The position numbers and the translations under genes are program-made. 57,687 nt of DNA. Source: Pseudomonadota bacterium. Its GTDB lineage: Bacteria; Desulfobacterota; Binatia; Bin18. Positions 38,457 to 38,959 of this stretch are shown in pieces (the first letter of the stretch is position 1; each line of letters begins with the position of its first letter). Location: positions 1 through 57,687 of the forward strand of contig SYOC01000266.1 in the NCBI GenBank assembly GCA_005804965.1, given 5' to 3'. The notes below the pieces were generated by a model. The model did not search any database. It was not told the DNA's origin and saw only the letters and a list, made by a program, of their open reading frames with translations.

Positions 38457-38487
38457 TAGGCATTAGGCATTGGGCAACAGGCAACGG
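38457..38487 (+). repeat. Heptanucleotide array, left flank of the four-helix-bundle gene
   Basis: TAGGCAT TAGGCAT TGGGCAA CAGGCAA CGG. Confidence 0.85.
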
Positions 38488-38490
38488 AGA

Positions 38491-38874
38491 TCAAGCGTCG
38501 GTATGCTTTCCCAGCACCTTCCAGAGCGCGAAAAGTTGTTTGCCAAGAGAGTCCGCTTGTTCAAGTAAAAGAGCACCCTGTTCGGGGGAACAATACTTGA
38601 GGCGCATGGCAATCTCGAGTTGTGTCTGCAATTCTGCGAGAGATCCTCGGGCGATAGACAAATGGCGCGAATACTCTCTGCTGTAAGCTTTCGTGTATCC
38701 TTCGGCAATATTGGAAGGAATCGAGACCGCAGCTCTCTGCATCTGAGACGCAAGCCCATATATTTCATGTTTCGGGAATTTCTGGGTCGCTCGATACACG
38801 TTTTCCACCAAGTCCATTCCAACTTGCCAAACCCGCAAGTCTCGGAAGCTCTTGATGGTTGCGTTCTTTTCCAT
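38491..38874 (-). CDS. Four helix bundle protein (S23 / 23S rRNA intervening-sequence protein family)
   Basis: SFRDLRVWQVGMDLVENVYRATQKFPKHEIYGLASQMQRAAVSIPSNIAEGYTKAYSREYSRHLSIARGSLAELQTQLEIAMRL. Confidence 0.92.
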   Translation of the reverse strand: MEKNATIKSFRDLRVWQVGMDLVENVYRATQKFPKHEIYGLASQMQRAAVSIPSNIAEGYTKAYSREYSRHLSIARGSLAELQTQLEIAMRLKYCSPEQGALLLEQADSLGKQLFALWKVLGKHTDA

Positions 38875-38903
38875 TTTTCCTTGTTCCTGGTTTTCACCCT
38901 CTA

Positions 38904-38959
38904 TTGCCCGTTGCCTGTTGCCTGTTCCCTGTTGCCCGCTGCCTGTTGCCTGTCCCCCG
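38904..38959 (+). repeat. Heptanucleotide array (8 units), right flank of the four-helix-bundle gene
   Basis: TTGCCCG TTGCCTG TTGCCTG TTCCCTG TTGCCCG CTGCCTG TTGCCTG TCCCCCG. Confidence 0.92.

What the first reader, a model, noticed from the sequence alone, without database searches (positions are those of the whole stretch)
38457..38959. Four-helix-bundle (S23/IVP) gene flanked by inverted heptanucleotide arrays, inserted between E1-alpha and E1-beta
Seen: the E1-alpha stop (38962) and E1-beta start (38429) are separated by one small same-strand ORF of the S23/intervening-sequence protein family. That ORF is bracketed by two 7-nt-period arrays. Left is TAGGCAT TAGGCAT TGGGCAA CAGGCAA, ending 4 nt from the S23 stop. 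Right is eight TTGCCTG-like units, ending 2 nt before the E1-alpha stop. The arrays are reverse complements (CAGGCAA / TTGCCTG), so the ~500-bp unit has inverted ends. Known: S23-type proteins are encoded in intervening sequences inserted in some bacterial 23S rRNAs and have no established mobilisation mechanism. Inference: this may be a small mobile or repeat-propagating unit whose ends are heptad arrays, with the protein possibly binding them or their RNA.
Basis: partly seen in the sequence, partly recalled or inferred. Interest (0 to 1): 0.82.

Follow-up and report, generated by a model that had tools for sequence, protein, structure and literature searches.

The report
Mobile S23 gene inside heptad hairpin
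A small bacterial gene of unknown function (S23, a four-helix-bundle protein) turns out to travel as a roughly 420-500 base unit bounded by mirror-image arrays of 7-base repeats. The same repeats lie scattered without the gene through the genomes that carry it, which links a family of orphan proteins to a class of bacterial repeats nobody has explained.

Summary
The window's S23 gene (PF05635, 130.7 bits) lies between E1-alpha and E1-beta, bracketed by inverted 7-nt arrays. Most S23 genes in relatives (43/65) and in about 20 phyla (42/75) have such inverted arms; random positions almost never do (0.1-0.2%). The repeat unit differs between loci, but left mirrors right at each one (72/85 differ by at most 1 of 7 bases; different loci differ by 3.4). 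Arms peak at 4-5 units.

Movement is shown once cleanly: a 416-bp arm+S23+arm unit sits at three unrelated sites on cyanobacterial plasmids, with homology ending at the arms, and one site has four unfilled relatives whose gene end the insertion truncated. At the window's own site the gene is old and decaying; relatives keep whole, deleted, solo-arm or empty versions, and the arms changed sequence together.

Genomes with S23 also carry S23-less heptad hairpins, half of them with a unit close to a resident S23's; nine S23-free genomes had none. Xanthomonas fits: its published, unexplained GGGAATC hairpins match the arms of its S23. Neither a reverse transcriptase nor a Y1 transposase is required. 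How S23 acts is untested; I propose it binds the arrays and mobilises the hairpins.

The parts
38491..38874 (-). S23 / 23S_rRNA_IVP (PF05635, TIGR02436) four-helix-bundle gene, 127 aa
   Evidence: AlphaFold model pLDDT 95, best PDB matches 2GSC (XCC0516) and 2RLD, then DGR Avd 4DWL
38904..38962 (-). 5' arm: eight heptad units, on the S23 sense strand GGCAACA-like (G-rich), upstream of the S23 start, reaching the E1-alpha stop
38457..38485 (-). 3' arm: four heptad units, on the S23 sense strand TTGCCTG/ATGCCTA-like (C-rich), 5 nt after the S23 stop; reverse complement of the 5' arm
38878..38882 (-). AAGGA, putative ribosome binding site of S23
   Evidence: read from the sequence; not tested
38962..40020 (-). 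E1-alpha, upstream host gene of the operon
   Evidence: PF00676 E=1e-73
37458..38429 (-). E1-beta, downstream host gene of the operon
   Evidence: PF02779/PF02780
36221..36267 (.). solo heptad array lying inside the coding frame of the E2 gene (35795-37468), where it codes the linker to a C-terminal extension
   Evidence: linker role is inference
11947..11995 (.). solo heptad array (CCCAACCCCTAACCCC-type)
29563..29581 (.). solo heptad array (ATTGGGG)
44470..44500 (.). weak solo heptad array (TGGGGAT-like)

Best explanation
The feature is one copy of a family of minimal mobile elements, here called S23 elements: an S23 gene in the loop of a hairpin whose stem is a pair of inverted arrays of about 4-5 (here 4 and 8) 7-nt units (7-9 nt in some lineages). 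SHOWN: arms and gene form one unit, which has inserted as a whole at least once; decay by internal deletion leaves solo arrays; arms at the same ancestral site change sequence together; genomes with S23 carry short-loop hairpins without the gene, often with a unit close to the resident S23's. INFERRED: the element is carried in transcripts, where the stem can be cut by RNase III as in the 23S rRNA intervening sequences, so insertions between operon genes are tolerated. The pentameric S23 ring binds the array (about one unit per subunit) as single-stranded or hairpin DNA or RNA, and promotes its copying in cis and, for the gene-less hairpins, in trans. Template switching between the two arms keeps them mirror images. 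The enzyme that cuts and joins DNA is unknown and presumably a host one.
For: Association: 43/65 and 42/75 S23 loci above the 99th percentile of between-locus pairs, random positions 0.08-0.2%, lag-7 identity 0.61-0.78 against about 0.25. Mirror: unit distance 0.82/7 within a locus against 3.37 between loci. Arm length peaks at 4-5 units. Movement: 416-bp unit at three unrelated sites, homology ends at the arms, no flank similarity; insertion into the 3' end of an ORF that is intact in sister plasmids. Decay: E1 site, glmS site, Xanthomonas accB-accC. Concerted arms: monophyletic E1-site S23s (0.965) carry different, self-matching units. Hairpins: 39 arrays in 626 kb of seven S23-bearing genomes, 0 in about 580 kb of nine S23-free genomes, including the same-genus pair G027 (5) against G048 (0). 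Cognate units: 29/58 solo arrays within 1 base of a resident S23 unit, 9 expected; GGGAATC 393 copies in X. arboricola, 55 in Pseudoxanthomonas, at most 10 in 22 others. Presence/absence of hairpins between sisters at 95-98% flank identity. Purifying selection on Xanthomonas S23, dN/dS 0.10.
Against: No biochemical evidence that S23 binds heptads. Only one clean gain event was resolved; the E1, glmS and accB-accC sites show vertical descent and loss. About a third of S23 genes have no detectable arms. Solo arrays could all be decay products rather than hairpins moved in trans. S23 has no recognisable catalytic site and is close to neutral in net charge (median +1), unlike a typical nucleic-acid binder. 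The cognate match is partial (half of solo arrays), and neighbouring arrays are not independent counts. No target-site duplication was found.
Confidence: 0.62

Rival explanations
1. S23 is a host regulator. The heptad hairpins are its RNA regulon: the pentamer binds arrays in mRNA between operon genes and controls stability or translation, and arms at its own gene are autoregulation. Spread of hairpins is ordinary duplication retained by selection.
For: S23 under purifying selection and conserved at accB-accC in 31 of 35 Xanthomonas-genus genomes; arms sit next to stop and start codons (median 3 nt after the upstream stop); Xanthomonas repeats are transcribed and positionally conserved (PMC4692102).
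Against: Patchy presence within genera and decay to pseudogenes and solo arms; units differ by locus within one genome, which a single regulator would hardly tolerate; copies on conjugative plasmids and viral contigs; the unit moves as a whole.
Confidence: 0.2
2. The arrays are host simple-sequence repeats arising by replication slippage, and S23 elements merely insert into or beside them.
For: Heptamers are over-represented SSRs in many bacteria, attributed to polymerase slippage (PMC4692102, PMC4679880).
Against: Insertion into a pre-existing array would give direct, not inverted, flanks (inverted 43 and direct 4 of 65); S23-free genomes had no arrays; the plasmid empty site has no array.
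Confidence: 0.06
3. A retroelement: S23, a relative of the DGR protein Avd, works with a reverse transcriptase that copies the hairpin RNA.
For: Avd-like fold (4DWL, TM 0.73-0.75), bAvd and DGR-Avd profile matches below cut-off; RNA copying would explain arm turnover.
Against: No RVT_1 match in G008, G027, G041 and G055, which carry 2-10 S23 genes.
Confidence: 0.06
4. A REPIN/RAYT-like system in which a Y1 (HUH) transposase moves the heptad hairpins and S23 is cargo.
For: Same layout: a gene between inverted repeats plus many dispersed hairpins; Y1 genes are common in several S23-rich genomes.
Against: G008 (98% complete, one contig) and G027 (99% complete) have S23 and arrays but no Y1 match.
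Confidence: 0.06

Closest known systems
23S rRNA intervening sequences (IVS) with S23 ORF (Leptospira, Coxiella)
   Same: Same protein family; ORF in the loop of a stem; in Coxiella three GACAGAT heptamers next to the ORF, copy number varying between strains (PMC4990558)
   Different: Sits between protein genes of operons, not in rRNA; arms are arrays on both sides with locus-specific units; dispersed gene-less hairpins. No Coxiella or Leptospira IVS was examined here
REPIN / RAYT (TnpA-REP)
   Same: Gene bounded by inverted repeats, with cognate hairpins dispersed through the same genome
   Different: No HUH transposase; repeat is a heptad array whose sequence differs by locus; protein is a four-helix bundle
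Xanthomonas GGGAATC and Nostoc GGGGA(C/T)T heptamer repeats (Rehm 2015, PMC4692102)
   Same: GGGAATC is the unit of the arms of Xanthomonas S23; four units typical, 70-75 inverted pairs per Xanthomonas genome, between aligned genes
   Different: The paper treats them as G-quadruplex repeats of unknown role and does not mention S23; the Nostoc unit was not matched to an S23 arm here
TAACTGA repeats of Beggiatoaceae, Cyanobacteria, Bacteroidetes (PMC4679880)
   Same: Intergenic heptamers, patchy, suspected to be transmitted
   Different: Described as direct repeats, almost never inverted; link to S23 not tested
DGR Avd protein
   Same: Pentameric four-helix bundle, structural match
   Different: Needs a reverse transcriptase; below Avd family cut-offs

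Membership tests
S23 / 23S_rRNA_IVP (PF05635, TIGR02436) | profile match over the curated cut-off | tested here: met
   130.7 bits (cut-off 33.8) and 118.7 bits (cut-off 24)
S23 / 23S_rRNA_IVP (PF05635, TIGR02436) | four-helix-bundle fold of 2GSC | tested here: met
   pLDDT 95; TM 0.83-0.97 to 2GSC
23S rRNA intervening sequence (IVS) | located inside 23S rRNA | tested here: not met
   lies between E1-alpha and E1-beta; no rRNA in 20 other S23 loci scanned
23S rRNA intervening sequence (IVS) | ORF enclosed by a base-pairing stem | tested here: met
   arms pair in the predicted fold, z=-2.2; mirror arms in most loci
23S rRNA intervening sequence (IVS) | excised by RNase III | not testable with these tools
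   needs RNA mapping in rnc+ and rnc- strains
REPIN/RAYT | Y1 (HUH) transposase encoded by the element or genome | tested here: not met
   S23 is not PF01797; none in G008 and G027
REPIN/RAYT | cognate hairpins dispersed in the same genome | tested here: met
Diversity-generating retroelement | reverse transcriptase present | tested here: not met
   no RVT_1 in four S23-bearing genomes
Insertion sequence / MITE | target-site duplication | tested here: inconclusive
   none seen at the one resolved insertion; a short stretch of target is missing instead
Insertion sequence / MITE | conserved terminal inverted repeat sequence | tested here: not met
   ends are inverted, but the unit differs between loci

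The most novel reading that the evidence does not exclude
A previously undescribed, bacteria-wide class of mobile element. A non-enzymatic pentameric protein recognises arrays of its own heptad unit and drives the copying of hairpins built from that unit, with and without its gene, while the unit itself drifts locus by locus in both arms at once. The long-known dispersed heptamer repeats of Xanthomonas, cyanobacteria and others would be its non-autonomous copies.
Probability: 0.5. Interest if true: 0.95.

Novelty: categorically new. Interest (0 to 1): 0.88.

Why it matters
S23 proteins are a very large family (5,846 relatives of this one protein found) with solved structures but no known function; they are usually filed as 23S rRNA oddities. 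Separately, dispersed heptamer repeats in Xanthomonas, Nostoc and others have been described without an explanation. The evidence here joins the two: such repeats are the ends of S23 elements. That gives S23 a substrate to test, gives the repeats a candidate driver, and would explain why heptamers occur as inverted pairs of about four units between genes in operons. It also raises a mechanistic puzzle: how two arms 400 bp apart change sequence together while staying mirror images.

Tried and rejected
Chance or generic repeats: rejected by between-locus, pseudo-element and lag controls. Insertion into a pre-existing direct array: rejected, flanks are inverted and the resolved empty site has no array. 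RT-dependent retroelement and Y1 transposase as obligate partner: rejected. Location in rRNA: none in 20 weak-arm loci. A universal heptad consensus: only a weak one, barely above shuffled units; the constant features are a G-rich first arm (65 against 11) and mirror symmetry. In-register mirroring of unit variants: 60 of 69 loci favour the observed order, but only 8 individually exceed 95% of permutations and the test is slightly biased by choosing the aligned region, so I do not rest on it. Broad alignment A1 was too diverse for the search for related loci.

Full report
1. The locus. On the minus strand the window reads E1-alpha (38962-40020), heptad array, S23 gene (38491-38874), inverted heptad array, E1-beta (37458-38429). 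The S23 protein is a clear PF05635/TIGR02436 member; its model is a four-helix bundle (pLDDT 95) matching 2GSC (XCC0516 of Xanthomonas campestris) and, more distantly, the DGR protein Avd. On the S23 sense strand the first arm is G-rich (GGCAACA-like, eight units) and the second its reverse complement (four units). The transcript folds with the arms paired round the ORF (z -2.2).

2. It is a rule, not a curiosity. The window's genome holds two further S23 genes; L001 has inverted arms of another unit (TAGTTGG-like), and L003 is cut by a contig end. In 59 genomes of the same class, 26 carry a match to S23, with up to ten copies. Of 65 loci with both flanks readable, 43 have inverted flank similarity above the 99th percentile of between-locus pairs; direct similarity is as high in 4; pseudo-elements placed elsewhere in the same loci exceed it in 0.08%. 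In 75 named loci from about 20 phyla it is 42, with a control of 0.2%; viral contigs show the same. Inside the matched arms identity at lag 7 is 0.61-0.78 against about 0.25 at most other lags and in the ORF. Among 85 loci with arrays on both sides, the unit of the left arm and that of the reversed right arm differ by 0.82 of 7 bases (72 of 85 by at most one), whereas units of different loci differ by 3.4. Arms peak at 4-5 units and lie about 410 nt apart. About a third of S23 genes show no clear arms.

3. The unit moves. On cyanobacterial plasmids the same 416-bp segment (arm, S23, arm) occurs at three unrelated sites: Nostoc punctiforme pNPUN02 and relatives, Trichormus/Scytonema, and Aulosira laxa plasmid 2. 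The copies are 82-84% identical, the homology starts and stops at the outer ends of the arms, and the flanks share nothing. The Aulosira site is empty in Calothrix NIES-22 (two plasmids), Microchaete and Aulosira plasmid 1. In three of these the upstream gene runs on to ...TKAQTELDDF-like ends; in the filled copy it stops at the first bases of the arm (...MQKQS*), and the rest of the gene end lies beyond the element. The fourth (L410) has the same intact junction but a frameshift further upstream. This is a gain of arms plus gene as one unit. A short stretch of target is missing and no target duplication is visible.

4. The unit decays into solo arrays. In 13 genomes (the window's and 12 relatives) the E1-alpha/E1-beta gap holds: complete elements (window, G003, G012), an element with a stop in S23 (G005), an internally deleted S23 between both arms (G008), a right-arm remnant only (G001, G010, G014, G015), or nothing (G004, G006, G007, G013). 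The four E1-site S23s are monophyletic (support 0.965), so this is most simply one old insertion. Yet the arms differ (GGCAACA in the window, GGGCTCT in G005, GGGGTTA-like in G003/G012) and the pairs still mirror themselves, weakly in G012 (inverted score 8.5): the arms have changed in concert. The glmS site in the same family tells the same story of S23 loss with arms left behind. In Xanthomonas the accB-accC S23 is conserved in 31 of 35 genomes with dN/dS 0.10, and in the other four the gap holds a gene-less (GGGACCC)n hairpin instead.

5. Gene-less hairpins and their link to S23. In 20-kb samples not chosen for S23 (plus the window), seven S23-bearing genomes had 39 heptad arrays in 626 kb, other periods almost none; nine S23-free genomes had none in about 580 kb. 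Within one genus G027 (two S23) had five and G048 (none) had zero; three other S23-bearing genomes with one or two copies had 0-1. About half of solo arrays have an inverted partner within 110 nt (19 of 40, control 4 of 380). In 1.05 Mb all inverted pairs were either short-loop hairpins (13) or contained S23 (1, the window's own). Solo units resemble those of S23 genes in the same genome (29 of 58 within one base, 9 expected from other genomes). Around glmS, hairpins of the resident S23's unit are present or absent between sister genomes at 95-98% flank identity. GGGAATC occurs 393 times in X. arboricola, whose S23 arms are GGGAATC, 55 times in Pseudoxanthomonas and at most 10 times in 22 other S23-bearing genomes; TTAGTGG is less clean, being most common in a cyanobacterium. 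Rehm et al. (PMC4692102) described these GGGAATC repeats in Xanthomonas (about 185 per genome, four units, 70-75 inverted pairs, transcribed) and left their function open.

6. Mechanism. Shown: unit structure, one insertion, decay, concerted arms, cognate hairpins. Inferred: transcripts carrying the stem are tolerated because RNase III can cut it, as shown for the Coxiella IVS, which itself carries GACAGAT heptamers beside its S23 ORF (PMC4990558); the S23 ring binds the array; copying uses host enzymes. Arm length near five fits a pentamer but does not prove it. An RT or a Y1 transposase is not required in the genome. A host-regulator role is the main rival and is not exclusive: Xanthomonas S23 looks domesticated.

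7. Novelty. I found no report joining S23 to heptad arrays beyond the Coxiella remark, in an open-access library only. It works like a REPIN/RAYT pair and like an rRNA intervening sequence but fails a defining feature of each. A cautious reader may call it an IVS-type element outside rRNA (new variant of a known kind).

8. Limits. Many loci come from MAGs; loci are not phylogenetically independent; neighbouring solo arrays are not independent; array detection used period 7 and misses 8-9-nt units; one clean gain only; no wet evidence.

Noticed in passing
L036:3-2186 (G008) and L029 (G012): An S23 element lies inside a DNA methylase gene (PF01555) and the host reading frame stays open straight through it in both species, while S23 is read in another frame; the same ORF also contains two gene-less heptad hairpins that are translated.
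   Followed up: partly
window 36221-36267: A heptad array lies inside the E2 ORF (35795-37468) and encodes the linker to a C-terminal extension, so a repeat remnant may have fused two genes.
   Followed up: no
L036 about 2320-2443: A roughly 110-nt dispersed repeat with dozens of copies in genus g3 and g2 genomes (44 matches in G008), unrelated to the heptads.
   Followed up: no
L404, L405 (Nostoc plasmids): S23 gene directly downstream of an IS transposase in both plasmids, with a CTTCTGC array after it but no matching inverted first arm: a possible hitch-hiking S23.
   Followed up: partly
literature, PMC3936711: 18 PF05635 genes were reported inside cas loci, one between cmr3 and cmr2; the present finding suggests S23 elements inserted in cas operons rather than a CRISPR function.
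   Followed up: no
L397-L400 (four Xanthomonas-genus genomes): The accB-accC gap carries a (GGGACCC)n hairpin with a loop of about 55 nt instead of S23, next to a GAATCCC remnant of the usual arm.
   Followed up: partly
window 42120-42372: A 120-bp tandem repeat, 2.1 copies at 96% match.
   Followed up: no
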